Of a stretch of DNA of 32,256 bases, positions 1-22,259 are shown in pieces (position 1 is the first letter of the stretch; each line of letters begins with the position of its first letter). The DNA comes from Candidatus Saccharibacteria bacterium CG2_30_41_52. Its GTDB lineage: Bacteria; Patescibacteriota; Saccharimonadia; Saccharimonadales; Saccharimonadaceae. The DNA lies in contig MNZN01000012.1 in the NCBI GenBank assembly GCA_001873625.1, forward strand, positions 76,712-108,967, in the 5' to 3' direction. A model generated the notes under the pieces. It was given only the letters and a program-made list of their open reading frames with translations, was not told the DNA's origin and made no database searches. The translations under genes were made by a program, and so were the position numbers.

Positions 1-1908
1 ATATACAGCAGCGCTACTGCTTGATTTTACAAGGCCACCAGGAGCATATATAGGCTTGCTTGTTGGTATCGAATCAGCTGTAATTTTTGGCAGGAGCGCC
101 CATTTAGTAGATTTGTCTATATGTAGATTCAAAAAATCATTCCAACTCGGAATAGAGTATTTTTTACCTTTTATAACCATATATATTGTCGATTCGCCAT
201 CGACTTTTATGAAACGGCTATTCACTGGCTGTGTGCTATTTGGAATTAGACCAAATATTGTATCCGTTAAAGTTGTATAAGACCCCAACCATTCTTCAGG
301 GTTTGAGAGTAGAGTTTTGCCGTACGAGTCAATAATATATTTCTTACCCGTACTATTCTGGGCAAAACCATTAAAGCTTTTACTGATTGTAAACTCGTTT
401 ATACTGGCGCTATCTAGTTTGCTATCTGATAATTTAGTGAAAGCGTCAGAATCTAATAAGTACGCAGATAATTTTATAAACCGACCATTTTGCGATATAT
501 ATTTACTACCAGTCTCTCTAGAGGTGACGATAACATCATCCCTTATAACTGGAGAGCCGTAACTTAGATTTGATATAGCCGACTCATTTAACGTATTGGA
601 GTTGGCAGATACTCCAATTTTCTGTAAAGATGCATCATCATATATTTCTTTCTTTTCGCCTGATTTTATATAAAACCTCTTGCCATTTGTCGTTTGAAAT
701 ACATTCGTCATGCTTGGACCGGTCGATAATGACCCTATCAGATAATCTGAGAGTAAAGCTGGTTGCGTGCAGTCATATCCATAATCGACCATCTGCGCAC
801 AACTCTTAAACGCTAGTTTAATACCAGAATCAAAATAATAAATCGTTCCACTGCTGGACGTAATCAATCTACCTAGTGTACGACCCAGTGATTTTGCATC
901 TAAATATGACTGCGTCACATATGTTATATCACCAAAAGGCTTAAGCGAGCTAAGTATGCTAGCGTCAGCAATTGGGTATCTGTCATCATCAGATATAAGA
1001 TACACGGTCGCATTCTCTCTAGTTCTTACTAAATTACCAAACTGAGGCGAACCAAACCAGTCGCTAAAATATAGATAAAAATTTCTATTACCGTACGCAC
1101 CGCAAAAAACCGAACCGTAGCCAGCGTCTAACGCGGCCTGGTTTGGCTGATAAGGCGTATAGTCATACAATGCTTGCGTTGCTCGGTTTTGTATATTTAC
1201 CGTTGAGCTACCGCAGTATTCAATATCAGCTTTCGTGCCAAACCTTCCATAATAACTCTGCGTAGCGTTGTTATAAGGTCCGGGATTGTAATATATTTTA
1301 TTATTACCAACTACATATGGTGAATACCATGTAGGAGAATCGTTCATAATAGCTCGATACATCTTTCCAGACCAATCCAACTGATTAGTTAATCCATAAT
1401 ACTGGCTATCACAAGGTGCCGTGTCTGGGCATCCATACCCTGTAGCTTTTTCGTACTGCCAAGGCCCAGGCCAGTCATCAGTTACGAGCCCTTGTTCTTT
1501 TTGTAACAATACAATTAAAACTTGTGGATTTATATGATATTTTTGCGCAACGTCATAAATAATCTGAGCAGAGCTCTTACCTCCCTCCTTATAGTCACGT
1601 AAGCACGTTAGCGGAGTATCATACCCCCAGCTACGTATATAATCACGACGAGATGTTGCCGTTGAACCACCCGTTCCCCAGGTGTCGCAGACGGGAACTT
1701 TACTATTTAGAAAATCTTGAATCTGCTTTACTGTCATAGTTTGATCATTAGTGAAAATGTTGTCATTTATGATAAACCCCGGGTTAAGGCCAACAACAGG
1801 CGTCGCAAACACCATACTACTACTTGCAATAATAGTCCCAATCAAAGAGAGCGCGATAAACGCGAAGAGTGTAGTAATTATTCTCTTCTTTGGTGTTATT
1901 ATGCTCAT
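1..1908 (-). CDS. Secreted repeat-containing surface protein, C-terminus cut by the window edge
   Basis: The minus-strand frame is open from the ATG at 1908 to base 1 (636 codons) with no stop, so the C-terminus lies outside the window. Residues 1-36 form a signal peptide (basic start, hydrophobic core, ending near VFAT). Residues about 55-285 resemble a domain I recall from secreted actinobacterial proteins, often labelled haemagglutinin-like, with hallmarks QKEQGLVT, GYGCPDTAPCDSQYYG and YTPYQPNQAAL. The phrase INPQVLIVLLQKEQG looks like the helix bearing the catalytic Glu of lysozyme-like enzymes, but activity is unproven. From about 290 on there are diverged repeats of the type TVYLI...R.PI and TGKKYIIDS / KGKKYSIPSW, probably beta-rich. 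It starts 4 nt after the preceding gene's stop, so it is the distal gene of the polysaccharide operon. Likely cell-surface; exact function unknown. Confidence 0.85.
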   Translation of the reverse strand, partial: MSIITPKKRIITTLFAFIALSLIGTIIASSSMVFATPVVGLNPGFIINDNIFTNDQTMTVKQIQDFLNSKVPVCDTWGTGGSTATSRRDYIRSWGYDTPLTCLRDYKEGGKSSAQIIYDVAQKYHINPQVLIVLLQKEQGLVTDDWPGPWQYEKATGYGCPDTAPCDSQYYGLTNQLDWSGKMYRAIMNDSPTWYSPYVVGNNKIYYNPGPYNNATQSYYGRFGTKADIEYCGSSTVNIQNRATQALYDYTPYQPNQAALDAGYGSVFCGAYGNRNFYLYFSDWFGSPQFGNLVRTRENATVYLISDDDRYPIADASILSSLKPFGDITYVTQSYLDAKSLGRTLGRLITSSSGTIYYFDSGIKLAFKSCAQMVDYGYDCTQPALLSDYLIGSLSTGPSMTNVFQTTNGKRFYIKSGEKKEIYDDASLQKIGVSANSNTLNESAISNLSYGSPVIRDDVIVTSRETGSKYISQNGRFIKLSAYLLDSDAFTKLSDSKLDSASINEFTISKSFNGFAQNSTGKKYIIDSYGKTLLSNPEEWLGSYTTLTDTIFGLIPNSTQPVNSRFIKVDGESTIYMVIKGKKYSIPSWNDFLNLHIDKSTKWALLPKITADSIPTSKPIYAPGGLVKSSSSAAVY

Positions 1909-1912
1909 GTAT

Positions 1913-2431
1913 CTATTGTACCTTGTAAGTCTTAGTCGCGCTTCCTTTCCTAGTTCCTATCTCGACAGAAAGTGTCGTCTGCCAATCACCAGGCGACAAT
2001 TCACCTATAGATATATTAAATCCCTCACAAGTTGAAGTAGTCGGACCAGCTTGTATGCCGCTTGTTTTAGTAACAGTCACACCGTCTTTGACCATTGTCA
2101 AAGTGCATGACCCACTATTACTAACTGCCTCTATTAAACTGCGTATCTGAATTTGTTCAGTTGATTGATTAAAAGACGTAAAATCAACTGCTATGATGCC
2201 GTCTGTGCTTGTATTGCCTTTGGGTGTTGTATCCTTGCCATCTGCAGGCACGGCTGTTGATTTTTTCTGATCCTCACCAGCATCCTTTTGTTCATTGGTT
2301 GCTTTGTCGCTATTGAATGGAAAGAGATCGTTAAAATAAGCCACAGTACAATATAAAACAGCAAGAATTATCATACTGGATGTAATTATTGTAATTATTT
2401 TTTTATTAGATTTTCTTTTATTTATTTTCAT
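1913..2431 (-). CDS. Hypothetical membrane-anchored extracytoplasmic protein
   Basis: This encodes 172 residues. A Lys/Arg-rich start is followed by one hydrophobic segment (about residues 12-33, IITIITSSMIILAVLYCTVA), then a low-complexity linker rich in Lys, Asp, Thr and Ser (about 40-80). A C-terminal domain follows (about 82-172) with two cysteines (in SGSCTL and STCEG) that could form a disulfide, and a beta-rich, Ig-like look (GDWQTTLSVEIGTRKGSATKTYKV). It is therefore probably an anchor with an extracellular beta-sandwich. I do not recognise a named family. The stop is 4 nt before the start of the secreted repeat protein downstream, so the two are probably co-translated and may act together at the surface. 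A gap of 73 nt separates it from the upstream glycosyltransferase. Confidence 0.75.
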   Translation of the reverse strand: MKINKRKSNKKIITIITSSMIILAVLYCTVAYFNDLFPFNSDKATNEQKDAGEDQKKSTAVPADGKDTTPKGNTSTDGIIAVDFTSFNQSTEQIQIRSLIEAVSNSGSCTLTMVKDGVTVTKTSGIQAGPTTSTCEGFNISIGELSPGDWQTTLSVEIGTRKGSATKTYKVQ

Positions 2432-2504
2432 AAACCCACTTTTATTATTGTGAATTAGTTTATTTACACTATAAATAATACCATAAACGGTATGAATTAG
2501 CTAC

Positions 2505-3494
2505 TTATTTAACGCGCTTCTTCTCTAGAGAATGTTTATTAAAAAGGTCACTGTCCCCCAAATCTGCTGCAACCGCCAGTCGAACGCCGCGCCACTTTTC
2601 AATATGGAACAGCGGGTTAACAACTAGCCAATATAATTTTCTTTTTTTCGAAAACTGACCATCATAGATCGTGCGAACCCAATCTTTAGCAACCCCGACT
2701 ACAATTAGTTTAATCATTGATTTTATCGAAGGTGACCCCACGTTAACACCAAAACGACGGAGGCCAATGGTTTCATCAAACATACGATTCTTATACTCAC
2801 TCAGTTTTAGATCATTAGAATGAACAACACTAGCTCTTGCCGCATAAACTTTGTAGTAACCGGCATCTATAATATCCCTTCCGAATAGTTGATCCTCTGC
2901 ATATGGAACGTCTTTATATGGAAATTCACCAACAAGATAATCACGTCTTGCGGCTGAATTTACGTCAGAATAAAAAGTAATTGCATCATATATGCCTTGA
3001 TTTGCTACAAAATCATCTTTATAAAAGATAGTTGTTCCAAAATCTGGTCCGAAATTCTTAAAAACACTTTGAATCTCATATTTAAGTAATGGGAAACAAT
3101 TCGATCGAGGAATTTGCTTACCCGTAACTCCAACAATTTTGTCATTCAAACTAAAAGGCTTAACCATTTCATATAACCAACTATTATGCGCAGGGATTGC
3201 ATCATGCGATAAGTAAACCACTATCTCGCCTTTTGCGATTTGAGCAGCATAATTCCTAGTCTTGCCATGACCGAACTCGCTATTAGCAATTTCGACTAGT
3301 TTGATATTTTTGTGCTTATTCATGTAGGTCTTGATAATCTGAAGAGTCTTATCTTTGGACCCAGAATCAATTATTAGAACTTCAAAAAGGAAGTCTACTT
3401 TTTGAGTAAAAATAGCAGCTAATATATCCCCTAGATGATCTTCTCCGTTATATGTCGGTATAAATATAGTTGCTTTCATCTTATTATTCTTCAT
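2505..3494 (-). CDS. Glycosyltransferase family 2 (rhamnosyltransferase-like)
   Basis: A 329-residue inverting GT-A enzyme. The N-terminus has the family 2 nucleotide-binding pattern (ATIFIPTYNGEDHL, then LIIDSGSKDKT). The metal/donor site is probably YLSHDAIP near residue 95, where a DxD-type acidic site is expected. Further along, YAEDQLFGRDI fits the ED acceptor/catalytic-base motif of this family. GHGKTRNYAA and VTGKQIPR are typical of rhamnosyltransferase-like members that build O-antigen or cell-wall polysaccharide, but sugar specificity cannot be read from sequence. No transmembrane segment is evident, so it should act on a lipid-linked acceptor at the cytoplasmic face. The start overlaps the last 11 nt of the epimerase gene, indicating translational coupling. 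Confidence 0.9.
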   Translation of the reverse strand: MKNNKMKATIFIPTYNGEDHLGDILAAIFTQKVDFLFEVLIIDSGSKDKTLQIIKTYMNKHKNIKLVEIANSEFGHGKTRNYAAQIAKGEIVVYLSHDAIPAHNSWLYEMVKPFSLNDKIVGVTGKQIPRSNCFPLLKYEIQSVFKNFGPDFGTTIFYKDDFVANQGIYDAITFYSDVNSAARRDYLVGEFPYKDVPYAEDQLFGRDIIDAGYYKVYAARASVVHSNDLKLSEYKNRMFDETIGLRRFGVNVGSPSIKSMIKLIVVGVAKDWVRTIYDGQFSKKRKLYWLVVNPLFHIEKWRGVRLAVAADLGDSDLFNKHSLEKKRVK

Positions 3495-4434
3495 TTTCAG
3501 TCTTTCCGATTTCTCTTCTTATATAGTCGTAAGTTCGCGCCATACCATCGTTTAACGACGTGACCGCCAATCTTCCGAATTCTCTATTAAAAGATGACGT
3601 ATCTAAATCTACTTTTTGTAGGAATGTAGGGGGAACTTCTTTATGTTCTATCAAAATTTCTTTTTGTGAAACCTCTCTTGCAACTTCGATTAACTGGTTG
3701 ACGCTAGTGGCGACACCTGCCCCCATATTATAGGTATCCTCAATCGTATCTTGTTGAAACATCGACACAATACCGTTGGCTAAATCTTTTACGTATATGT
3801 AATCCCTAGTCATACTGCCGTCACCCAAAACAGTGATTGGTTTATCCTGATATATATTCTCTAAAAATATAGGGATTACTCCTTGTTTGCGATGAAATGG
3901 CTGTCTTTCTCCGTAAGGATTCGAGATTCTCAAGACTAGTGAGCCAAGCCCATGTTTAACACGAAAATACCTTAAATAATGCTCGATTGTTAATTTACCA
4001 ATTGCGTATGGTGATACAGGATAAGGAGTATCTGTCTCTTTAAATGATGTTAGTTTATCATTATTACCATACACAGCACCACCTGTTGATGCAAAAATAA
4101 CCTTACCAATTTTTTTACTTACGCACAATTTAAATAATTCAACGCTCATCCTTATATTTGTGTCGACATCTACCACCGGATCATTTTCAGCACTAGCTGG
4201 TGTTGTAGTAGAAATAAAATGGAACACATATTCAACATCATTAAGAGCCTGGTCTAAATCATTCAAATTAAGATAATCGCCCGCAATAACTTCAATGTTT
4301 TCACTATTGTTAAACATATACTTATCAGAACTAAACCTATCGAATGCACGCACCGTATGACCAGCGTCAACCAAAGAATCAACCAAGTGGCTACCGATAA
4401 AACCATTCGCTCCTAGTACTAATGTTTTTGCCAT
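3484..4434 (-). CDS. NAD-dependent sugar epimerase/dehydratase (extended SDR)
   Basis: A 316-residue extended short-chain dehydrogenase/reductase acting on nucleotide sugars, similar to UDP-glucose 4-epimerases. The Rossmann NAD-binding loop is GANGFIGS (residues 8-15). The substrate-proximal Ser/Thr region is FASTGGAVYG (about 115-124), and the catalytic pair is Y143 and K147 in SPYAIGK. The region NPYGERQP is typical of GalE-like proteins, and DGSMTRDYIYVKDLA is a conserved C-terminal element. It probably supplies an activated sugar to the adjacent glycosyltransferases; epimerase versus dehydratase cannot be settled here. The ATG overlaps the previous gene's stop in a TAATG arrangement, with AAGGAAC just upstream as the Shine-Dalgarno sequence. 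Confidence 0.93.
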   Translation of the reverse strand: MAKTLVLGANGFIGSHLVDSLVDAGHTVRAFDRFSSDKYMFNNSENIEVIAGDYLNLNDLDQALNDVEYVFHFISTTTPASAENDPVVDVDTNIRMSVELFKLCVSKKIGKVIFASTGGAVYGNNDKLTSFKETDTPYPVSPYAIGKLTIEHYLRYFRVKHGLGSLVLRISNPYGERQPFHRKQGVIPIFLENIYQDKPITVLGDGSMTRDYIYVKDLANGIVSMFQQDTIEDTYNMGAGVATSVNQLIEVAREVSQKEILIEHKEVPPTFLQKVDLDTSSFNREFGRLAVTSLNDGMARTYDYIRREIGKTENEE

Positions 4435-5669
4435 TACGAAAGTTCCTTATCTATAATTTTCAAAAACTTCTTACCAGCCACATCCCACCCATTTGTTGCC
4501 ACACTTTCTGAGGCTTCTTTGGAATAAGTTGTTAGATTATCTTTTTTAACTATCTCTATGATTTTATCTGCCAATGCTTCTGGTGATGGATCGGTATACG
4601 CAATATACGGATTATTACTTACTAACCTATTGTTTGGCGCATCATTAACCACCGGTATAGTTCCGCAAGCCAATAATTCAAGTGGCAATAATGACATGTT
4701 AGTAAGCGACATAACCAAAGCTGCTGCTGATTTATTGTATACGTCCGAAAGTTCCTGCATCTTCATCATTTTGTGGTTAACGTATGGGAAAGGAACGTCC
4801 CATTCTGATATATCCCAACCTGCCATATTAATAGTGTATTCAGGCATTCTTTTGTGAAAAATTTCTAGTGCCATCACACCAAGATCAAACCCTCTGCGCT
4901 CAGTCACAGGGCGAGCATAAAAGAATATCTCTTTTCTTTTATTGCTATTCGTCAATTGATAATTCTTAGGGTCTGCTCCAAAATCATAATGATCACAAAC
5001 CATTCCATATTCACTTGTAAGTTTTTTATCTAGCCAACCTCCGGCTGTTACACCGTGAAAGCCAAATTTGTATGTATTCTCTGCAAGAACATAATCAGTT
5101 CCCATAGGATAAAAGAATGGTTCAAAATCTTGAACAAAATACATTTTATGAGCATCCGTTTTTTCATTAAAAACAGGATACGCCGTCTCCCATCCGGTAG
5201 CAAATAAAATATCTGATTGCTCCATGATATTCTTTTTGTATCGGTAGAAAGATAGTTTATCTGCTTCGCAATACGCACTAACGTTATCTCGCGCCTGAGC
5301 GATAGTCATATCATCCTGGGTACTATAAAGATATACGTTATTTTTATACCCCAGCTTATCAAGTATCTCAATAAACCTGAATATATTTTGGTGACCTCCT
5401 CCTCCACCGGGGGGTGACATGACCCAATTTATTGTGTAGGGTGCCTTCGTTTTGTGCAACGAAGCAATATATGGATTTTTTGACCAATCGGCGTCCATTA
5501 CACTTTGTCTATCAACTAAGGATACGAATCTCTTCTTCAACGCCACATTGTCGCTTTTTTTTGATTGATATTTTTGGATTTTTTGAAGGCCTTTTATGCC
5601 AAACGAGATCAAGCCCTCATTTTTCAGAATAGTTGCAGCCTTTCGGCTATATTTTTTTATTCTACTCAT
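4434..5669 (-). CDS. Glycosyltransferase, WsaF-like (GT4 type)
   Basis: A 411-residue GT-B fold glycosyltransferase resembling the rhamnosyltransferase WsaF, which helps build S-layer glycans. After a basic N-terminal stretch (1-70), a first Rossmann domain starts with INWVMSPPGGGGGHQNIFRF, a glycine-rich loop typical of this group. The middle holds YFVQDFEPFFYPMG. The donor-binding half carries FFYARPVTERRGFDLG and the motif LVMSLTNMSLLPLELLACG, with Glu as the usual donor-contact residue, followed by VVNDAPNN. The ATG lies within the end of the pyruvyltransferase gene (ATGAGTAG overlap). It is likely to extend the lipid-linked glycan that the operon's ABC transporter exports. Fold and family are clear; the sugar is not. 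Confidence 0.88.
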   Translation of the reverse strand: MSRIKKYSRKAATILKNEGLISFGIKGLQKIQKYQSKKSDNVALKKRFVSLVDRQSVMDADWSKNPYIASLHKTKAPYTINWVMSPPGGGGGHQNIFRFIEILDKLGYKNNVYLYSTQDDMTIAQARDNVSAYCEADKLSFYRYKKNIMEQSDILFATGWETAYPVFNEKTDAHKMYFVQDFEPFFYPMGTDYVLAENTYKFGFHGVTAGGWLDKKLTSEYGMVCDHYDFGADPKNYQLTNSNKRKEIFFYARPVTERRGFDLGVMALEIFHKRMPEYTINMAGWDISEWDVPFPYVNHKMMKMQELSDVYNKSAAALVMSLTNMSLLPLELLACGTIPVVNDAPNNRLVSNNPYIAYTDPSPEALADKIIEIVKKDNLTTYSKEASESVATNGWDVAGKKFLKIIDKELS

Positions 5670-6876
5670 ATTTTTTACCTACAATCATATAAGCTATCCT
5701 TTTCATACGAGAAAGGAGCCTCTTCTTTTGTTCGATCACTAATTTATTCTCTAGCTCGCTAATATAATCTCTCAGAGTATTCAGCTTTTTTTCGCTAGAA
5801 CGCATATTTTCATAAATCATATTATGCATAAGAACATCACGCTTACCGACAACGCCCTCAAGCTGCTTAACCTCTAGTTGTAACCTGCGTAGCGCACTAG
5901 CTTTAATATCATCACTGCCTTCTTCATATTGCGCCGTAGTGCTGGTTGAATTAATAATCTCAACATACTTATCAATCGTCTTATTAACCATGGCCCTATC
6001 TTTTTCAATCTTCTCACTCATATCTATGTTTGAGTTTTCAACTAAGTCAATTAAGCCGACAAGCTGTTCTTGATTTGTATACACAAAGTTATCAAGCTTT
6101 CGATCTTTAAAATAATCATGTGCCTTTTTTTGATACATCGATATAAAAGGCACATTTTGAGTATACGCAAAAATGCTAGCATGCAAAGATGAGACTATTA
6201 CGTAGTCCATTTGTGACATTGCAGAATGAAGTTCAAGAGGCTCAAGTTTGTCTAACATTATTGCATTTGTTTTATCAAAAGGCAGGTTCTTCATGAAGCT
6301 CGCATCTTGATTGTAATGTGTAAACGGAATGAATACTTTTTTATGGGGAATATTGTTAATAATTTGAATAATATCAGGGCACGTGATTAATACATCCGGC
6401 ACTAATTGAATGCCAACCACCTTTTCGCCGGGTTTTGATTTTAAGCCTGGAATTGTATATTTTTTTGATTCAAGCAATGTAGTCGTGCACGGTATAACAT
6501 CTACCCCTTTACCAACATACCCCTTTATAACATTCGACTCAAAAGTGCTTCGGGTAGAAACATATAAATAGTCTTTTAGATAGCTGAAGTCTTTTGTCCC
6601 GGATACCCCGACACTATTTAATATATGCTTACCTTTTATGCGAAATTTATCATAAAAGTCATCACCGGGATCGCGTAATAGTTGACCTCCACCTACGATA
6701 ACCGTTCTTGATGGATCATTCTTGTAAGTGTACGGATCCAGTATTCTGGCTTTTATGCCGCGCTTTTCTAATACCTGAATTAAAGCCACCCCTATAGCGA
6801 TGTCGCCCGTATTTAAACTTACAGAATCGTATAAAATTCCGACTGTTTTATCTGTTGTGTTAATCTTTTTTGACAT
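5662..6876 (-). CDS. Polysaccharide pyruvyl transferase family protein
   Basis: A 404-residue member of the polysaccharide pyruvyl transferase family (CsaB/WcaK-like), which adds ketal pyruvate from phosphoenolpyruvate to glycans. Hallmarks are VGILYDSVSLNTGDIAIG at the start, VIVGGGQLLRDPGDDFY near residue 60, the RST pattern in YVSTRSTFE, and VIVSSLHASIFAYTQNVPFISM, the conserved S-x-H-x-x-I region. Residues about 320-395 form a predicted coiled coil ending in a basic, amphipathic tail, longer than a minimal CsaB. In Gram-positives, pyruvylated wall polymers serve as ligands for surface-layer proteins, which may link this gene to the secreted protein at the operon's end (inference). The Shine-Dalgarno sequence CGGAGGT lies within the end of the upstream gene, which it overlaps by 17 nt. 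Confidence 0.88.
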   Translation of the reverse strand: MSKKINTTDKTVGILYDSVSLNTGDIAIGVALIQVLEKRGIKARILDPYTYKNDPSRTVIVGGGQLLRDPGDDFYDKFRIKGKHILNSVGVSGTKDFSYLKDYLYVSTRSTFESNVIKGYVGKGVDVIPCTTTLLESKKYTIPGLKSKPGEKVVGIQLVPDVLITCPDIIQIINNIPHKKVFIPFTHYNQDASFMKNLPFDKTNAIMLDKLEPLELHSAMSQMDYVIVSSLHASIFAYTQNVPFISMYQKKAHDYFKDRKLDNFVYTNQEQLVGLIDLVENSNIDMSEKIEKDRAMVNKTIDKYVEIINSTSTTAQYEEGSDDIKASALRRLQLEVKQLEGVVGKRDVLMHNMIYENMRSSEKKLNTLRDYISELENKLVIEQKKRLLSRMKRIAYMIVGKKYE

Positions 6877-8068
6877 AATTAGCTATTACCTCCGGGTGTG
6901 TAAATGCAGTTGAAACTCTCCATCCACTAATTTCAAATTTTGCCGTCTTTAGTAGCTGGTCGTAAACTACAGATTTATCATTTGATTTTAGGGCTGCTGA
7001 TATCGTATACGTTCCGTTATGGAATATATTTTTTGTTACCAAGTTAATCGACATTCTTTGTTTCTTATTTAATGAAATGTCTAATTTTTCTTCAATGTTG
7101 TTATAAGAAAATATAATGTTATCTGAAGCATCTTGAATCTGAACACCAAGAATTGCTGATTTAACATCTCGGTTCGCAATAACTTCCACTAAAATGTTTA
7201 GGTCCTCTTTTGGAGATATATGTTTAATATCCTTGCCATCTTTTTGGATATGGAGTTTTTGAATAGTAGCAGAACCATCCCCATAATGGTGAGACTCATC
7301 TTTACTTTCGCCTTTTACTGCCGATCCTGAGAAGTTAATCTCATTGTATATTGCTGCGGCCTCCGTAGAGTTGCCACTAAATTGGATAGACCCATTGTTG
7401 ATAATAATAGCTTTGTCACAAAAATCTTGAACCGCCGCCATGTCATGGCTTACGAAAACAACTGTCTTTTTGCTAGCTTTTAGTTGTTTAAAATAATTTA
7501 GGCATTTGCGTTGGAAGTTTGCATCACCTACGGCCAAAACTTCATCTAGTACTAATATGTCCGTATTAGCCCTAATTGCAATAGAAAATGCCAAACGAAC
7601 CTGCATACCCGATGAATAATTCTTTAGTTTTTGATCCATGAAGCGTTCAAGTTCAGCAAATTCAACAATCTCATCATACATCTCGCCCATTTCTTTGCGA
7701 TTAAAGCCGAGCAAAGCGCCGTTTAGAAAAACGTTGTCACGACCAGACAATTCAGGATTAAATCCAACTCCTAGCTCTATAAATGGAGTAAGCTTGCCAT
7801 TGATTTCAATAGACCCTTCATTTGGAGTATATATCCCAGCTAGCAACTTAAGAAGTGTGCTTTTACCGCTACCGTTGCGCCCAACAATTCCAAAAAACTC
7901 ACCTTTTTTTACATCAAAAGACACATCCACTAATGCGTGTTGAACTTCATATCCACGCTTGCGGAAATTAATTAATCTACCTTTTATAGAGCTCTGCTGA
8001 TCATGTGGCAACTTAAAATTCTTACTTACATGCGAAACTCTAATAGCAATGTCATTATTTTCTATCAT
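6860..8068 (-). CDS. ABC transporter ATP-binding protein for polysaccharide export, with Wzt-like C-terminal domain
   Basis: 402 residues. The nucleotide-binding domain (about 1-245) has Walker A GRNGSGKST (63-71), signature YSSGMQ (151-156), Walker B ILVLDE (171-176) and the switch His208 in VSHDM. It belongs to the Wzt/TagH/RfbE export subfamily, shown by the features around ELGVGFNPELSGRDNVFLNG. Residues about 265-395 form a beta-rich extension like the Wzt C-terminal carbohydrate-binding domain, which in homologues recognises the terminal modification of the finished glycan before export. That suggests a defined capping group, possibly made by a neighbouring enzyme (inference). Its start abuts the permease stop (TAA then ATG), forming the usual export pair. 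Confidence 0.94.
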   Translation of the reverse strand: MIENNDIAIRVSHVSKNFKLPHDQQSSIKGRLINFRKRGYEVQHALVDVSFDVKKGEFFGIVGRNGSGKSTLLKLLAGIYTPNEGSIEINGKLTPFIELGVGFNPELSGRDNVFLNGALLGFNRKEMGEMYDEIVEFAELERFMDQKLKNYSSGMQVRLAFSIAIRANTDILVLDEVLAVGDANFQRKCLNYFKQLKASKKTVVFVSHDMAAVQDFCDKAIIINNGSIQFSGNSTEAAAIYNEINFSGSAVKGESKDESHHYGDGSATIQKLHIQKDGKDIKHISPKEDLNILVEVIANRDVKSAILGVQIQDASDNIIFSYNNIEEKLDISLNKKQRMSINLVTKNIFHNGTYTISAALKSNDKSVVYDQLLKTAKFEISGWRVSTAFTHPEVIANYVKKD

Positions 8069-8869
8069 TTATATATTCTCCGCAAAGTAATTGGCCTGAC
8101 TCTTGAAATACAATAACCCACACAAAAAAACTATTCCAACAAACACAGATGGGATAATGACATACCACGACCCGCCCCACATTCCATATGTTGTTAGGGC
8201 GTCGTGCGTAATCAGGTTATAGCGAGAACCTTGAATGGCTTGTGCCACTGGATTCATTAATAGAATTTTTTCGACTAGCTCGTTATTTACAAGCTGCAAA
8301 GGATAAATAATTGGTGTCGCATAAAACCCAGCCTGCAGGACAACTTCCCATATATAACTGACATCACGAAATTTCACATAAGCAGCTGATAAAAATAATG
8401 ACAACCCCAAGGCGAATACATAAATCATAACCAGATAAACTGGTAGCATTAGTATACCGAGAGTTAAAGGTACTTGATTCACAACCATAAATACAAAAAC
8501 AACAACTAAGCTCAGTAGCAAGTTGATTGTTGCGGAAATGCTACTCGAAAATACCACCATCCACCTAGGTATACGGATTTTTCTTATCAAATCACCACGT
8601 CCAACAATAGACCCTAGACTTTGCATCGTCATTTCTACAAAGAAATTCCACATAACTATACCTAGTAATAAATAAACTGGGTAATGAGGAATGTCATTGC
8701 CTATATGTAAAAAATAAACAAATACAATATATAAAATAACGAATAACAAAAGTGGTCGAAGCAAAGACCAAGTGTAGCCTAAAATAGATCCTTGATATCT
8801 TAGTTTAAAATCGGTTCTAACCAATTCGCTAAAAAGAGCTTTATTCTCTTTGGATAAATAATTAATCAT
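8069..8869 (-). CDS. ABC-2 type permease for polysaccharide export (Wzm/TagG-like)
   Basis: 266 residues from the chosen start. Six hydrophobic segments and the conserved N-terminal region FSELVRTDFKLRYQGSILGYTWSLLRPLL, shown here only as a family cue, are typical of Wzm/TagG permeases. So is the late segment VVLQAGFYATPIIYPL with the following LLMNPVAQAIQGSRY. The reading frame extends upstream to 9046, but that extension overlaps the divergent glycosyltransferase and lacks family character. The start at 8869 (MINYLSK) fits the family and lies just downstream of a TATAAT on the same strand. It heads the minus-strand polysaccharide operon and forms the membrane channel with the adjacent ATPase. 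It has no clear Shine-Dalgarno sequence. Confidence 0.92.
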   Translation of the reverse strand: MINYLSKENKALFSELVRTDFKLRYQGSILGYTWSLLRPLLLFVILYIVFVYFLHIGNDIPHYPVYLLLGIVMWNFFVEMTMQSLGSIVGRGDLIRKIRIPRWMVVFSSSISATINLLLSLVVVFVFMVVNQVPLTLGILMLPVYLVMIYVFALGLSLFLSAAYVKFRDVSYIWEVVLQAGFYATPIIYPLQLVNNELVEKILLMNPVAQAIQGSRYNLITHDALTTYGMWGGSWYVIIPSVFVGIVFLCGLLYFKSQANYFAENI

Positions 8870-12005: not shown

Positions 12006-13093
12006 TGAGCCACATAGCCATTGATGCGCGTATTATTAACAGTTCAACTGGCACGTACGTTGAACGGCTACTCACTTACTTGCAAGAAGTTGATACAGTC
12101 AATCAATATTCAGTAATCGTGCCCTTTAACGACGTGAATTATTGGAAACCAACCGCTACAAATTTCAAAGTTATAACCGCCGATTTCAAGAACTATTCCC
12201 TATCCGAACAAATTGGATTTAAACGATTTTTAGACAAACTACATCCAGATTTAGTTCATTTTTGCATGCCTCAACAGCCCATTTTATACAAAGGCAAACA
12301 TGTCACTACTTTTCATGATTTAACACTATTACAAACCTACAACTCGGATAAAAACTGGTTTGTTTTTCACACTAAACAGCAGGTCGGTAAATTCGTATTC
12401 AAAAGTGTCGCCAAATCCAGCCAACATATCATCACCCCAACTAAATTTACTAAAAATGAACTAGTCAAATTCGCTAAGGTATCGCCAGACAAAATTACAG
12501 TCACATACGAAGCAGCTGATGTTTTTATCGACCAACTAACACCATACAAACACCCATTCAACAGATATATTTTATACGTCGGCCAACAAAGTGACTATAA
12601 AAATATCCGCCGTTTGGGCGATGCTCACCAAAAATTATTATCAAAGTATCCAGACCTGGGATTAATATTAGTAGGTAAAAAGAACGCCAGCATAATTAGT
12701 AATGAAAAGTATTTTACAGACAAAAAATACCGTAATATATTATTCACTGATTTTATACCAAACAACCAACGCGACTGGCTGTACACCAATACCGCCGCCT
12801 ATATGTTCCCATCGCTTATGGAAGGTTTTGGATTACCAGGGTTAGAGGCTATGGGATATGGCGCGCCAATTGTCAGCAGCAGCGCAACATGTCTACCGGA
12901 GGTCTACGGCGACGCAGCCCTATATTTCGATCCTACTAATACCGACGACATAGCATCAGCAATTAACCAAGTTCTGTCAGATGATAATCTACGAAACAAC
13001 TTAATTAAAAAAGGTCATGAACAAATCAAAAAGTATTCTTGGAAGCGTATGGCTGAACAAACTTATAGCGTCTACAAAGACGCTATAAAATAG
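12005..13093 (+). CDS. Glycosyltransferase family 4 (mannosyltransferase-like)
   Basis: A 362-residue GT-B fold retaining transferase of the mannosyltransferase-B type. The N-terminus begins IAIDARIINSSTGTYVERLL, where the glycine loop binds the acceptor. The donor half has YILYVGQQSDYKNIRRL, the common VG...KN pattern, and FPSLMEGFGLPGLEAMGYG, the EX7E motif with both glutamates. VVS-type contacts and CLPEVYGDAALYFDP complete the family signature. It is cytoplasmic and probably adds a hexose to the surface glycan. Its start codon sits in the right arm of the inverted repeat described above. Its last codons contain a perfect 10-bp hairpin that may serve as terminator. It converges with jag, with an 18-nt gap. 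Confidence 0.93.
   Translation: MSHIAIDARIINSSTGTYVERLLTYLQEVDTVNQYSVIVPFNDVNYWKPTATNFKVITADFKNYSLSEQIGFKRFLDKLHPDLVHFCMPQQPILYKGKHVTTFHDLTLLQTYNSDKNWFVFHTKQQVGKFVFKSVAKSSQHIITPTKFTKNELVKFAKVSPDKITVTYEAADVFIDQLTPYKHPFNRYILYVGQQSDYKNIRRLGDAHQKLLSKYPDLGLILVGKKNASIISNEKYFTDKKYRNILFTDFIPNNQRDWLYTNTAAYMFPSLMEGFGLPGLEAMGYGAPIVSSSATCLPEVYGDAALYFDPTNTDDIASAINQVLSDDNLRNNLIKKGHEQIKKYSWKRMAEQTYSVYKDAIK
13063..13088. terminator. Putative bidirectional terminator hairpin inside the GT4 3' end
   Basis: TTATAGCGTC (13063-13072), loop TACAAA, GACGCTATAA (13079-13088) form a perfect 10-bp stem overlapping the last codons of the GT4 gene. TTGTTT follows on the plus strand. It lies at the convergence of GT4 (plus) and jag (minus), where bidirectional termination is expected. 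T-tracts are weak on both sides, so efficiency is uncertain. Confidence 0.5.
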
Positions 13094-13111
13094 TTGTTTC
13101 TAGAATAAATC

Positions 13112-13573
13112 CTAGCTACCAGCCTGAGCAATCGTAAGCTTGCGGTCGTAACCTTCACCTTCAGAAAATGTACGAATATCACTATATTCGCTAGCTACTT
13201 GGTGAACGATGCGCCTGTCGGCAGCATTAAGGCTAACAATCTTTGAATCACCACTACGTCTGACTTCTGCAATCCATTCACGGGCTTGTTCAGCCAAGCG
13301 ATCAGCACGTTGTTTTTTGTAATCAGCAATGTCGATATTTACACGAGTGATTAAAGAACCTTTGTTGCGGAGTACGGTTGAAACAATATATTGCAATCCA
13401 CGAAGAGTTTCGGCATTACGACCAATCAACAAACTGTTTAGTTCATTCGAAGGTACAGATAGTTCAATTACATCATCGTTACAAGTTGATCTGACGGTCA
13501 AATTTGCCCCAAAAAACGACAGTAAATCTTCCAGATATTTCTGTGCGAATTGGACTGATTCTTCTTTATTCAT
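13112..13573 (-). CDS. jag: Jag/KhpB RNA-binding protein (KH and R3H domains)
   Basis: A 153-residue KhpB (SpoIIIJ-associated, Jag) protein. The KH domain includes LLIGRNAETLRGLQYIVSTV (about 48-67), with the GRxxxxL loop that contacts RNA. The R3H domain covers about 85-153 (RADRLAEQA...MNAADRR-type region, then IVHQVASEYSDIRTFSEGEG), where the R-x-x-x-H signature reads RRIVHQ. The N-terminal Jag domain found in longer homologues is missing, as in many short versions. It binds RNA and influences cell elongation and envelope genes in Firmicutes. AAGGAG precedes the ATG, and it lies 14 nt after yidC, the standard pair. Confidence 0.93.
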   Translation of the reverse strand: MNKEESVQFAQKYLEDLLSFFGANLTVRSTCNDDVIELSVPSNELNSLLIGRNAETLRGLQYIVSTVLRNKGSLITRVNIDIADYKKQRADRLAEQAREWIAEVRRSGDSKIVSLNAADRRIVHQVASEYSDIRTFSEGEGYDRKLTIAQAGS

Positions 13574-15454: not shown

Positions 15455-16828
15455 ATGTATCACGCGTTGTGGCAAAGTGTGCTCGGTGAAATCGAATTGA
15501 CGGTTCCACATGCTACATTCACGACGTGGTTCAAAAACACTGAACTTGTTGACCAAAACGACGCTGGCGTTGTTATATCAGTCGCTAATATATTTGCTAA
15601 AAAGCAATTCGAAGTAAAGTTCGATGATCAAATAAAAAGCATCCTTAGTAAACAAGGTATAAACCCAAAACAAATTAGCTATATTGTTAGTACGTCAAAC
15701 AAAAACACCAGATCTAATCGCGAAACCACCATTAACTCATCGTCTCAAGTTACCGCTGATGATTTAATATCAACTTCACCTAGGTATCAATCACAACCAG
15801 TCACAGCTTCAGTTGGCGGCCTCAACCCTCGTTATACATTCGATAACTTTATTGTTGGCTCTAGCAATGACCTCGCCTACACAGCCAGCCGAGCCGTTGC
15901 TGCAAATCCTGGAATTAAATATAATCCTATATATCTATACGGTGGCGTCGGTCTTGGTAAAACTCACCTTATGCAAGCTATCGGCAACGAGATTATTAAA
16001 AACGATCCTAAAATGCGGGTTTTATATATTAGTAGTGAAACTTTTGTAAATGAATTTTTGGAATATATTAGATTCAAGAAAAAAGGCTTCTCTGAAAAAT
16101 ATCGCAACGTTGATGTGTTAATTATTGATGATATGCAATTTATTGCTGGCAAAGAAAAAACTCAAGAAGAATTTTTCCATACATTCAATCACCTACATCA
16201 AAATAATAAACAAATTATTATCTGTAGTGATAAACCACCAAAAAGTATTCCAACCCTTACCGAGCGTTTACGAAGCCGTTTTGAAATGGGTATGGCAATC
16301 GACATTCAAATGCCAGACTTTGAAACTCGTTGTGCTATTTTAAATATCAAAGCTTCACTTTCGGGCGTTACCCTTCGAAAAGATACTATCGAATACCTTG
16401 CTACAAACATTAAAACCAATATTCGTGAACTTGAAGGTGCGCTGAACCGCCTACTTGCCTATGCTGAAATGCGTGGAGTTGAACCAGATATATCAACTGC
16501 CGAAGGATTACTAGGTAATATAAGACAATCACGCCCTCAGCACTTATCGAGTAAACAAATTATTGATCGTACCGCTAAACACTTCCAATTAGATGTTAGT
16601 GAAATATGTAGTGAAAAGCGTGATAAATATATTGTTGTTCCACGTCAAATTGCAATGTATCTACTTCGAAGTGAACTACACTTAAGTTTTCCTAAAATTG
16701 CTAATGAATTAGGCCGCAAAGACCACACAACTGCAATACATTCAATTGAAAAGATTGAAAAAGCTATCAAATTAGATTTCCTTATCCGTGAACAAGTATC
16801 TTCAATTCGTGAGAAACTCTATGCTTAA
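15455..16828 (+). CDS. dnaA: Chromosomal replication initiator protein DnaA
   Basis: 457 residues, full length. Domain I (1-80, opening MYHALWQSVLGEIEL) recruits partners. A polar linker follows (about 81-120). Domain III is the AAA+ ATPase, with Walker A GGVGLGKT (163-170), Walker B VLIIDD (221-226), the box VII/sensor region TERLRSRFEMG with its arginines, and sensor II TNIRELEGALNRL. Domain IV (about 362-457) has the helix-turn-helix and the DNA-binding signature RKDHTTAIHS (421-430). It binds DnaA boxes and melts oriC. It has a conventional leader with a Shine-Dalgarno sequence, and dnaN and recF follow in the classic order. Confidence 0.99.
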   Translation: MYHALWQSVLGEIELTVPHATFTTWFKNTELVDQNDAGVVISVANIFAKKQFEVKFDDQIKSILSKQGINPKQISYIVSTSNKNTRSNRETTINSSSQVTADDLISTSPRYQSQPVTASVGGLNPRYTFDNFIVGSSNDLAYTASRAVAANPGIKYNPIYLYGGVGLGKTHLMQAIGNEIIKNDPKMRVLYISSETFVNEFLEYIRFKKKGFSEKYRNVDVLIIDDMQFIAGKEKTQEEFFHTFNHLHQNNKQIIICSDKPPKSIPTLTERLRSRFEMGMAIDIQMPDFETRCAILNIKASLSGVTLRKDTIEYLATNIKTNIRELEGALNRLLAYAEMRGVEPDISTAEGLLGNIRQSRPQHLSSKQIIDRTAKHFQLDVSEICSEKRDKYIVVPRQIAMYLLRSELHLSFPKIANELGRKDHTTAIHSIEKIEKAIKLDFLIREQVSSIREKLYA

Positions 16829-20963: not shown

Positions 20964-22259
20964 TTAATGTCCGCTCGTTGACCAATGCCATGCTTCTGAC
21001 GGCAAATTATAAAAACCATATTTTGATGCGTTTTGTTTTAGCCAATTGCTTACGCTGTCACTTACAACAAAATCTATTGCTAGACCCTTTTCATGTTCGG
21101 ATTGGCCTGCTGGGGCTGTTTGTACCCTACAACTTGTGGACGGTGATATGTCGACGTCTGGACAGCCGTTTTTTATTCTTGCTGCTTTTTGAGCATTGTA
21201 ATCCCTAAATGCGCCGCTGCTTGTTAGTGCTGTGCCATCCTGTTTTGCGGCCGCTATCATATTAGCTACATTCTGAGATACCATTGAGGATACTCTGCCC
21301 AGGTCTGTTTGGCATAGCCTAATTGTAAAGCCCCTGGTTGGATGAGCATATGTGCCCTTGTCGGTTGTCCCGTCGGCGCATTTCGTATCTGAATAATCTT
21401 TATTACTAATCAATGACCAGCCATTCTGTAAACTCATTGTTCCGTCTGGTGCTGACGATCCGCTAACTGATGCTATGCCACAGTTGGGCGTGCTTGATGC
21501 GGATGCTGAGCTGCCATCGGTTGGAGAGCCATCGGTACCCGGAGTAACCTCTGGTTTGTTAGTTTTAGCTATTTCTGACGATGGTTGCCATTTGCCGTCT
21601 TTTGCGATGTAGGCTGTTACGGCGTTAGAGACACCGCCGACGGTTTGTATATATGTTGGAGACGTTGCATACCCTGCTGCCTTAATCTCGGTTATATATT
21701 GAATAGGATCGCCCGGATAGTTAAGGGCTTTATTGTATCTAGGGTTACTCGTTATGAACTTACCATAACCCTCCCAGCCAGCCTCTTCCGATGGGTATTT
21801 TCGAAAAGTCGCGTCAACAGTAACTGCGTTGCCACCATAAACTTCACCTGTCTGCATATTAATAGTTTCACCGTCCCATCCAGCGCTAGCTTTGATGCCA
21901 AAAAAGTTATTTGCTAGTCGTGTTAATCCAGAATTACCGTAGCCAGATTCTATAACTCCCTGCGCCAAAATAGCCTCGTATGGTATTCCATATTTCTTAC
22001 CTACATCGAATGCCATCTGGCCATATTTATCAACAAAACTTTCTATTGACTGATTTAGTGGTGCTGTTCCGACACCACCAAGAGCGTCTAATGAATTGGC
22101 GGTTGTACAATCTTCGGGGTTGTAAAATAGAATATCGTTAGCCGAAAAGAACTGCTCGTCATAAGTCGCGCCTACTATTCGTGTTAGTGACGTTGCACAT
22201 AGTACGCTAATTACTAGAATATTAGTGACAGTTGTCAGTATTTGTCTAGGTCTTGTCAT
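20964..22259 (-). CDS. Secreted GH73 glucosaminidase and VanY D,D-carboxypeptidase fusion
   Basis: 431 residues with an N-terminal signal or anchor (about 8-30). Residues about 70-220 form a glucosaminidase (GH73/LytG-type) domain: YGIPYEAILAQGVIESGYGNS with catalytic Glu104, then ANNFFGIKAS and TFRKYPSEEAGWEGYG. A Ser/Thr/Pro-rich linker (about 225-270) follows. Residues about 320-431 form a VanY/D-Ala-D-Ala carboxypeptidase domain with R352, the zinc motif SEHEKGLAID (H389, D396), E422 and H425 in EAWHW. The two activities would cut glycan strands and peptide stems of peptidoglycan. It is coupled by ATGA to the upstream gene and lies inside a type IV secretion-like locus, where wall hydrolases locally open the wall for the machine. 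Confidence 0.93.
   Translation of the reverse strand: MTRPRQILTTVTNILVISVLCATSLTRIVGATYDEQFFSANDILFYNPEDCTTANSLDALGGVGTAPLNQSIESFVDKYGQMAFDVGKKYGIPYEAILAQGVIESGYGNSGLTRLANNFFGIKASAGWDGETINMQTGEVYGGNAVTVDATFRKYPSEEAGWEGYGKFITSNPRYNKALNYPGDPIQYITEIKAAGYATSPTYIQTVGGVSNAVTAYIAKDGKWQPSSEIAKTNKPEVTPGTDGSPTDGSSASASSTPNCGIASVSGSSAPDGTMSLQNGWSLISNKDYSDTKCADGTTDKGTYAHPTRGFTIRLCQTDLGRVSSMVSQNVANMIAAAKQDGTALTSSGAFRDYNAQKAARIKNGCPDVDISPSTSCRVQTAPAGQSEHEKGLAIDFVVSDSVSNWLKQNASKYGFYNLPSEAWHWSTSGH

What the first reader, a model, noticed from the sequence alone, without database searches (positions are those of the whole stretch)
1..8869. Pyruvylated-glycan export operon ending in a secreted repeat protein
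Export ABC pair, pyruvyl transferase, WsaF-like transferase, epimerase and GT2 are translationally chained and followed by two surface proteins. In Gram-positives, pyruvylated wall polymer is the ligand for S-layer-type proteins, and WsaF acts on S-layer glycan. The operon may therefore encode both a modified glycan and proteins displayed on or bound to it. The terminal protein has no SLH domain in the visible part, so any binding mode would be different.
Basis: partly seen in the sequence, partly recalled or inferred. Interest (0 to 1): 0.5.

Follow-up and report, generated by a model that had tools for sequence, protein, structure and literature searches.

The report
Wall-protein tail that follows glycan genes
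In tiny Saccharibacteria, a secreted cell-wall protein has a constant front half and an exchangeable back half, and the back half changes together with the neighbouring genes that make and export the cell's surface sugar coat, which suggests the protein is matched to that coat.

Summary
The operon is real: wzm-wzt-PF04230-WsaF-epimerase-GT2 is tightly packed; a membrane-anchored Ig-like protein (p172) and a secreted 791-aa protein (TERM) follow. TERM's missing end has no LPXTG, SLH or membrane anchor.

Pyruvylation is not the constant partner. TERM matches in 91 of 121 family genomes, the window's transferase protein in 1, its Pfam family in 39. PF04230 hits do cluster near TERM, but as an optional gene.

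The wider idea, glycan plus protein as one unit, is supported. All 39 Wzt_C hits on TERM contigs and all 19 WsaF_C hits lie within 20 kb of TERM; in Actinobacteria 30 of 48 TERM neighbourhoods hold wzm+wzt.

TERM is a chimera: a constant, lysozyme-like domain without Pfam match plus one of at least a dozen exchangeable tails (LGFP, ricin, ChW, EccB-like). Tail type tracks Wzt/Wzm after control for N-domain and dnaA (0 of 1000 permutations); the EccB-like tail tracks WsaF.

Best reading: the tail docks on the glycan made next door and holds a wall-cleaving enzyme there. Activity and binding are untested; co-transfer of tail and cassette without functional matching is not excluded.

The parts
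8069..8869 (-). Wzm-type ABC-2 permease of glycan exporter
   Evidence: PF01061 E 1e-15; ATG at 8869
6860..8068 (-). Wzt-type ATPase with C-terminal glycan-recognition domain (Wzt_C)
   Evidence: ABC_tran 2e-22, Wzt_C 3e-15
5662..6876 (-). PF04230 polysaccharide pyruvyl transferase-like protein; optional cassette gene
   Evidence: PF04230 E 5e-17; own protein matches in 1 of 121 family genomes
4434..5669 (-). WsaF-like glycosyltransferase
   Evidence: WsaF_C 4e-17; 2x0e E 2e-15
3484..4434 (-). NAD-dependent sugar epimerase/dehydratase
   Evidence: PF01370 E 8e-53
2505..3494 (-). GT2 glycosyltransferase
   Evidence: PF00535 E 1e-22
1913..2431 (-). p172: one N-terminal membrane helix and an Ig-like sandwich with an invariant Cys pair; usual partner of TERM
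   Evidence: AF2 pLDDT 86, helix 10-36 then strands; Cys109 and Cys135 invariant in 62 rows; immediately upstream of TERM in 150 of 163 testable loci
1033..1821 (-). TERM N-domain (residues 30-292): lysozyme-superfamily-like fold with invariant Lys137-Glu138
   Evidence: VIA Z 9.4 to LytB 7pj3, 8.0 to AtlE 4pia; Lys and Glu invariant in 60 of 60 rows
1..1032 (-). TERM C-terminal repeats (window part; they run on to residue 791 outside the window), EccB/PlyCB-like
   Evidence: Foldseek EccB1 4kk7 E 1e-7; gene ends inside the repeats without an anchor

Best explanation
The locus makes and exports a surface glycan (Wzm-Wzt with its own glycosyltransferase cassette) and encodes a dedicated secreted wall protein matched to it. 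TERM leaves by a signal peptide (inferred). Its constant N-domain has a lysozyme/GH73-like fold and most likely cuts peptidoglycan glycan strands with the invariant Glu138 (inferred). Its exchangeable C-terminal module, here EccB/PlyCB-like repeats, most likely docks non-covalently on the glycan that the neighbouring cassette builds (inferred from coupled evolution). p172 is the membrane-held partner (inferred). Shown: the conserved p172-TERM pair, its co-location with glycan export in two phyla, the constant head with swapped tails, and the tail's co-variation with Wzt, Wzm and WsaF but not with its own N-domain. Not shown: enzyme activity, glycan binding, glycan structure.
For: Co-location: of 50 Wzt_C hits 39 lie on a TERM contig, all within 20 kb of it (11 are on other contigs or in genomes without TERM); all 19 WsaF_C hits lie within 20 kb (from; hits at E 0.001, a few under Pfam's cut-off). 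Chance would be about 4-5% (40 kb of roughly 0.9 Mb, my estimate). Second phylum: N-domain in 139 of 150 genomes of a Microbacterium genome's family; in 48 neighbourhoods, 40 that I picked from that search plus 8, wzm and wzt are both present in 30 and adjacent in 25, a glycosyltransferase in 44 (own profiles). Fold: N-domain to LytB Z 9.4, rmsd 3.4 over 140 residues; tail to EccB1, whose repeats resemble phage wall-binding PlyCB (PMC4769845, passages). Modularity: 168 tails in 17 clusters, 13 of them with two or more members; pairs with 70-97% N-domain identity share the tail type in only 25% of 353 cases. Matching: EccB-like tail with a strong WsaF in 15 of 21 loci against 2 of 130 others; 11 independent pairs on the N-domain tree, on average 8.3 same way and 0.1 opposite, median p 0.008. 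Among 15 such loci tail identity tracks WsaF (partial 0.41 given N, 2 of 2000 permutations) and not the N-domain (-0.02), while the N-domain tracks p172 (0.76). General: same tail type goes with similar Wzt and Wzm given N and dnaA in 43 genomes, partial r 0.24 each, 0 of 1000; tail type is unrelated to dnaA given N (-0.008); given N alone it also holds in 64 loci, with and without the EccB-like type.
Against: No sequence-level link of the N-domain to GH73: hhalign probability 2.8%, no significant Pfam or NCBIfam match in 35 members. The fold match is modest: Foldseek alone gives LytB E 0.37 and AtlE E 0.2, and VIA's own note warns that Z under about 13 may mean little for helical domains. Superposition of Glu138 on a known catalytic Glu was not done. 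In 55 of 64 loci the tail end faces the exporter, the tail-Wzt link vanishes between orientations (r 0.026, 379 of 1000), and the 5'-facing set is too small (36 pairs, 130 of 1000), so co-transfer can explain much. Single tail/gene links other than EccB-like/WsaF do not reach median p 0.05 on the tree, and on the dnaA tree even that one reaches only median p 0.125 with 6-7 pairs. Exceptions: WsaF with other tails (L062, L123; L238 with LGFP) and EccB-like tails without strong WsaF (6 of 21). Many loci are cut by contig ends, so an absent gene is not always a true absence.
Confidence: 0.43

Rival explanations
1. Linkage only: recombination in conserved flanks swaps the glycan cassette, and because the end of TERM lies inside the swapped block the tail travels along without having to match the glycan.
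For: The tail end faces the exporter in 55 of 64 loci; the tail-Wzt association is absent between orientations.
Against: In L002, L049, L050 and L052 the N-domain and p172 lie between cassette and tail, yet the other three resemble the window in tail (0.31-0.36) and WsaF (0.70-0.72) while their N-domains (0.46-0.53) are at the background of all loci (median 0.48). Several tails are recognisable binding folds, which neutral hitchhiking does not require.
Confidence: 0.28
2. Host targeting: TERM is an adhesin or lysin of an epibiont; its tails follow the wall glycans of different actinobacterial hosts.
For: Cultivated Saccharibacteria grow as epibionts on Actinobacteria (PMC10633639, abstract start). 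In S. epibionticum several envelope proteins with polysaccharide-binding domains are essential and the authors speculate on host glycans (same paper, passages). Tails turn over fast. Papers on lysins of Gordonia phages and mycobacteriophages mention LGFP repeats, one tail type here (term counts in the listing, not read).
Against: The same N-domain sits at wzm-wzt loci of the Microbacterium family, not known as epibionts (recalled). The tail tracks the cell's own exporter.
Confidence: 0.17
3. One reading: a pyruvylated wall polymer is the ligand of the terminal protein, as for SLH proteins and CsaB.
For: PF04230 gene in the operon; PF04230 hits cluster near TERM in both phyla (19 of 23 same-contig hits in family genomes; 7 of 47 actinobacterial genomes).
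Against: TERM in 91 of 121 genomes, PF04230 in 39, the window's own protein in 1; same gene order and tail without PF04230 in the locus in L049, L050, L052; no SLH.
Confidence: 0.06
4. Interbacterial weapon: TERM is the target-binding part of an antibacterial particle, comparable to lectin-bearing umbrella toxin particles of Streptomyces.
For: Constant domain plus varied lectin-like tails.
Against: Constant link to glycan export and p172 and presence in most family genomes point to housekeeping. Toxin genes were not sought.
Confidence: 0.05

Closest known systems
GH73 / lysozyme-superfamily autolysins (LytB, AtlE)
   Same: Fold of the N-domain (Z 9.4 and 8.0); an invariant Lys-Glu in the last turns of a helix; enzyme-like head plus wall-binding module
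   Different: No detectable sequence homology; constant head with many exchanged tails; sits in the glycan export locus with p172
EccB1 repeat domains / phage PlyCB / LysIME-EF1 wall-binding domain
   Same: Fold of the tail repeats (EccB1 Foldseek E 1e-7; 6ist Z 5.4 over 54 residues)
   Different: A string of repeats fused to a lysozyme-like head; global superposition poor (TM about 0.1); sequence match weak (Pfam EccB in 3 of 19 tails, best E 2e-4)
CsaB / SLH pyruvylated wall polymer system
   Same: A PF04230 protein beside a wall protein
   Different: No SLH; PF04230 is optional in the locus
Wzm-Wzt O-antigen exporters with Wzt_C
   Same: ABC2 permease plus ATPase with Wzt_C; the O-antigen transporter recognises its glycan through a carbohydrate-binding domain (PMC9445017, abstract start in the listing)
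   Different: Taken to be a monoderm wall setting (recalled); a secreted wall protein whose tail co-varies with the exporter
Streptomyces umbrella toxin particles
   Same: Constant part with diverse lectins (details recalled; PMC11062931 seen only as abstract start)
   Different: Different head (recalled); TERM is tied to glycan export loci

Membership tests
GH73 / lysozyme superfamily | Lysozyme-like fold | tested here: met
   The rows listed for the N-domain range are autolysin glucosaminidases, lytic transglycosylases, g-type lysozymes, phage lysins or tail-tip proteins and similar; top Z 9.4. Caution: Foldseek E 0.2 or worse for them, and VIA warns about Z under 13 for helical domains
GH73 / lysozyme superfamily | Sequence-profile match to Glucosaminidase family | tested here: not met
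   hhalign against five GH73 domains 2.8%; no Pfam match
GH73 / lysozyme superfamily | Catalytic Glu | tested here: inconclusive
   Glu138 invariant in 60 of 60 rows; not superposed on a known active site; spacing to GH73 'ESG' matches only by eye
EccB-type repeats | Repeat fold | tested here: met
   The 11 Foldseek hits with E below 0.001 are all EccB chains; local matches, not a global superposition
EccB (type VII secretion) | Sequence match above the Pfam cut-off | tested here: not met
   11.9 bits against a cut-off of 27 for the whole protein; tail profile against EccB1 E 0.02
EccB (type VII secretion) | Location with other ESX genes | not tested
   ESX genes were not searched for
CsaB/SLH system | SLH domain in the bound protein | tested here: not met
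   No SLH in the 791-aa protein
CsaB/SLH system | Pyruvyl transferase regularly with the bound protein | tested here: not met
   TERM 91, PF04230 39, both 35, of 121 genomes; enriched near TERM but optional
Sortase- or membrane-anchored surface protein | LPXTG plus C-terminal hydrophobic helix | tested here: not met
   Protein ends ...VLNTIVDGPAV within a repeat
ABC-exporter-dependent glycan locus | Wzm, Wzt with Wzt_C and a glycosyltransferase cassette | tested here: met
   adjacent wzm-wzt in 64 of 152 non-redundant loci, many of them cut by contig ends
S-layer glycan system (WsaF) | S-layer protein carrying the glycan | not testable with these tools
   Needs glycan and proteome data

The most novel reading that the evidence does not exclude
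A serotype unit whose boundary lies inside a gene: a hitherto unnamed lysozyme-like wall enzyme, shared by Saccharibacteria and Actinobacteria, carries an exchangeable self-glycan-reading tail that is replaced together with the cassette and the exporter that make that glycan, so that enzyme, exporter and sugar coat form a lock-and-key set.
Probability: 0.35. Interest if true: 0.78.

Novelty: new variant of a known kind. Interest (0 to 1): 0.6.

Why it matters
The constant domain is widespread (586 relatives confirmed in one capped scan; 139 of 150 genomes of one actinobacterial family), yet 35 members gave no significant match in Pfam or NCBIfam. If tails read the cell's own glycan, loci like this give a ready set of natural lectin-glycan pairs, tell how ABC-exported glycans meet the wall in monoderms, and make the surface chemistry of uncultured epibionts testable from sequence.

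Tried and rejected
Pyruvylation as constant partner: rejected. SLH: in L128 and L131 an SLH-like stretch seen by eye was not confirmed by Pfam (both are cut by the contig end). GH73 by sequence: not supported. Further tail/gene pairs (ricin tail, GT4 with Ig/B-lectin tail, wzt presence with EccB-like tail): not significant on the tree. One search made 616 tail/family tests, uncorrected; its partial Mantel over all neighbour families gave r 0.10 (0 of 500). p172 fold search: no match below E 0.001, generic sandwiches. Promoter and terminator scan before p172: no excess over shuffles. PHROGs: one weak match of the tail, none for p172 or the PF04230 protein. N-domain and full TERM against PDB sequences: nothing meaningful. 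Literature: the 10 searches of the held library listed no paper whose title or abstract start I recognised as describing this locus; passages were read in two papers (PMC10633639, PMC4769845), the rest were seen only in listings. Most subscription papers are not held, so this is no proof of absence.

Rows dropped: L118 from the WsaF test (short contig); loci whose TERM lacked a full N-domain or 50 tail residues (168 tails from 173 TERM ORFs in 172 loci; 167 loci used, some genomes twice); N-domain duplicates at 97% or more (167 to 152); second copy L213 of genome G077. WsaF means more than 300 bits with my own profile; with a laxer cut-off (E 1e-10) the table is 17 and 4 against 15 and 115. 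The dnaA of G004 is a 199-residue piece. Partial Mantel tests are known to be liberal (recalled). Identities between repetitive tails at 15-35% depend on the alignment.
Full report
Setting. The window is G000:C12:76712-108967 of an 825-kb genome, 96% complete. A genome placed in the same genus (G036) has a 542,581-base contig, the same length as that of 'Candidatus Saccharibacteria bacterium RYN_406', so the organism is taken to be a saccharibacterium (inference). A dnaA gene lies in the same window at 15455-16828 (named by sequence; used as query).

Observation. The locus extends beyond the window: TERM is 791 aa and ends within its repeats, without LPXTG or a hydrophobic tail. On its far side lie multi-membrane-span, methyltransferase-like and flippase-like proteins (named by eye, except a sub-cut-off flippase match).

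Is pyruvylation the partner? Not as a constant one. TERM matches in 91 of 121 family genomes, the window's PF04230 protein in 1, the PF04230 family in 39. L049, L050 and L052 keep wzm-wzt-WsaF-epimerase-GT2-p172-TERM, with the same tail type and without PF04230 in the locus; G004, the genome of L049, has one on another contig. PF04230 is nevertheless enriched near TERM: 19 of 23 same-contig hits within 20 kb in family genomes, and 7 of 47 actinobacterial genomes. It is one of several optional genes.

Is the protein tied to glycan export? Yes. In the same 121 genomes all 39 Wzt_C hits on a TERM contig lie within 20 kb of it (11 further hits are on other contigs or in genomes without TERM), as do all 19 WsaF_C hits. 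p172 stands immediately upstream of TERM on the same strand in 150 of 163 testable loci; six of the 13 misses are actinobacterial, and one other (L207) has an unmatched 198-aa protein in that place. The pair often lies near dnaA-yidC-jag. In 192 genomes drawn from the phylum 71 match, strongly within the order and mostly partially elsewhere. In the family of one Microbacterium genome 139 of 150 genomes match. Of 48 actinobacterial neighbourhoods 30 have both wzm and wzt (25 adjacent) and 44 a glycosyltransferase.

What is the protein? AlphaFold2 on residues 30-636 with 60 rows gave mean pLDDT 78, most of the N-domain near 90. VIA-align places the N-domain with LytB (Z 9.4, rmsd 3.4, 140 residues), AtlE (8.0), MltF (6.5) and g-type lysozymes (5.6-6.0); Foldseek alone ranks these low (E 0.2 or worse), and the tool advises caution for helical domains at such Z. 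What persuades me is that the listed rows for this range belong to one superfamily. Lys137-Glu138 is invariant in 60 of 60 rows, actinobacterial ones included. A sequence test against GH73 domains failed, so the fold is claimed, the family is not. The tail matches EccB1 (Foldseek E 1e-7), whose repeats are known to resemble wall-binding PlyCB (PMC4769845, passages). p172 is one helix plus a sandwich.

Modular tails. The 168 tails fall into 17 single-linkage clusters, 13 with two or more members; Pfam names ricin-type lectin, LGFP, B_lectin, N_BRCA1_IG, ChW, DUF5648, FG-GAP and fn3 among them. In 152 non-redundant loci the tail type changes at least 86 times on the N-domain tree; pairs with 70-97% N-domain identity share the type in 25% of 353 cases.

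Do tails follow the glycan genes? The EccB-like tail goes with a strong WsaF in 15 of 21 loci against 2 of 130 (Fisher 4e-14); on the tree, 11 independent pairs give on average 8.3 same way and 0.1 opposite. The neighbouring WsaF, GT2 and epimerase families are in 9 of 10, 8 of 9 and 8 of 9 cases with this tail, but each alone reaches only median p 0.06 on the tree. Among 15 loci with both, tail identity follows WsaF (0.41) and Wzt (0.39; 78 of 105 pairs), not the N-domain of the same polypeptide (-0.02); the N-domain follows p172 (0.76; 91 of 105 pairs). Across 64 loci with adjacent wzm-wzt, same tail type means more similar Wzt and Wzm given N (0 of 1000), also without the EccB-like type; the p172 control is weak (0.060, 32 of 1000; 0.041, 160 of 1000 without that type). 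With dnaA as a species proxy in 43 genomes the link stays (0.24, 0 of 1000) and tail type is unrelated to dnaA given N; on the dnaA tree the WsaF link has too few pairs (6-7, median p 0.125). In another phylum L242 combines WsaF, epimerase and GT2 with the EccB-like tail, but L238 combines them with LGFP.

Limits. In 55 of 64 loci the tail end faces the exporter and between orientations the signal is absent. So the swap block may simply begin inside TERM. That is itself notable, because the block's edge then cuts the protein between enzyme and binding module, but it does not prove recognition. The strongest counter-indication to pure linkage is the window's own group, where N-domain and p172 sit between cassette and tail and yet the N-domain is at background identity.

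Mechanism, by status. Shown: constant head, swapped tail, usual partner, shared locus, coupled evolution. Inferred: export by signal peptide, peptidoglycan as the constant substrate because the head is constant, cognate glycan as the variable ligand because the tail varies with the cassette, p172 as membrane tether. Unknown: which step of glycan assembly needs the cut (insertion, release or trimming).

Noticed in passing
window 20964-22259 (-): A GH73 glucosaminidase-domain protein lies beside the type IV secretion-like genes (named by eye); its C-terminal part looks like a VanY-type carboxypeptidase by eye. GH73 was found in only 5 of 41 family genomes.
   Followed up: partly
L086:3557-4129 and 12880-13452: A duplication: GT2, WsaF-like and p172 genes occur twice about 9.3 kb apart, with identical p172 copies; only the second is followed by TERM.
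   Followed up: no
L145:1141-4977: Two TERM genes, the second preceded by p172, with tails of one cluster.
   Followed up: no
L002:1621-3150 and 4738-6210 (-): Two similar multi-membrane-span proteins (about 500 aa) downstream of TERM; the one scanned had no NCBIfam match; they look like GT39/GT83-type transferases by eye.
   Followed up: no
window 1-1032 (TERM residues 297-358): Weak match of one tail repeat to a phage protein family of unknown function, phrog_9616, E 6e-5.
   Followed up: no
L128:9857-11467 and L131:9896-11401: Tails that end in an SLH-like stretch seen by eye, cut by the contig end; Pfam gave fn3 for L131 only and no SLH.
   Followed up: partly
S. epibionticum SEML1_0890/0891 (literature): Neighbouring locus tags of essential envelope proteins with fn3 and VCBS domains (PMC10633639, passages); could be a p172-TERM pair, not checked.
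   Followed up: no
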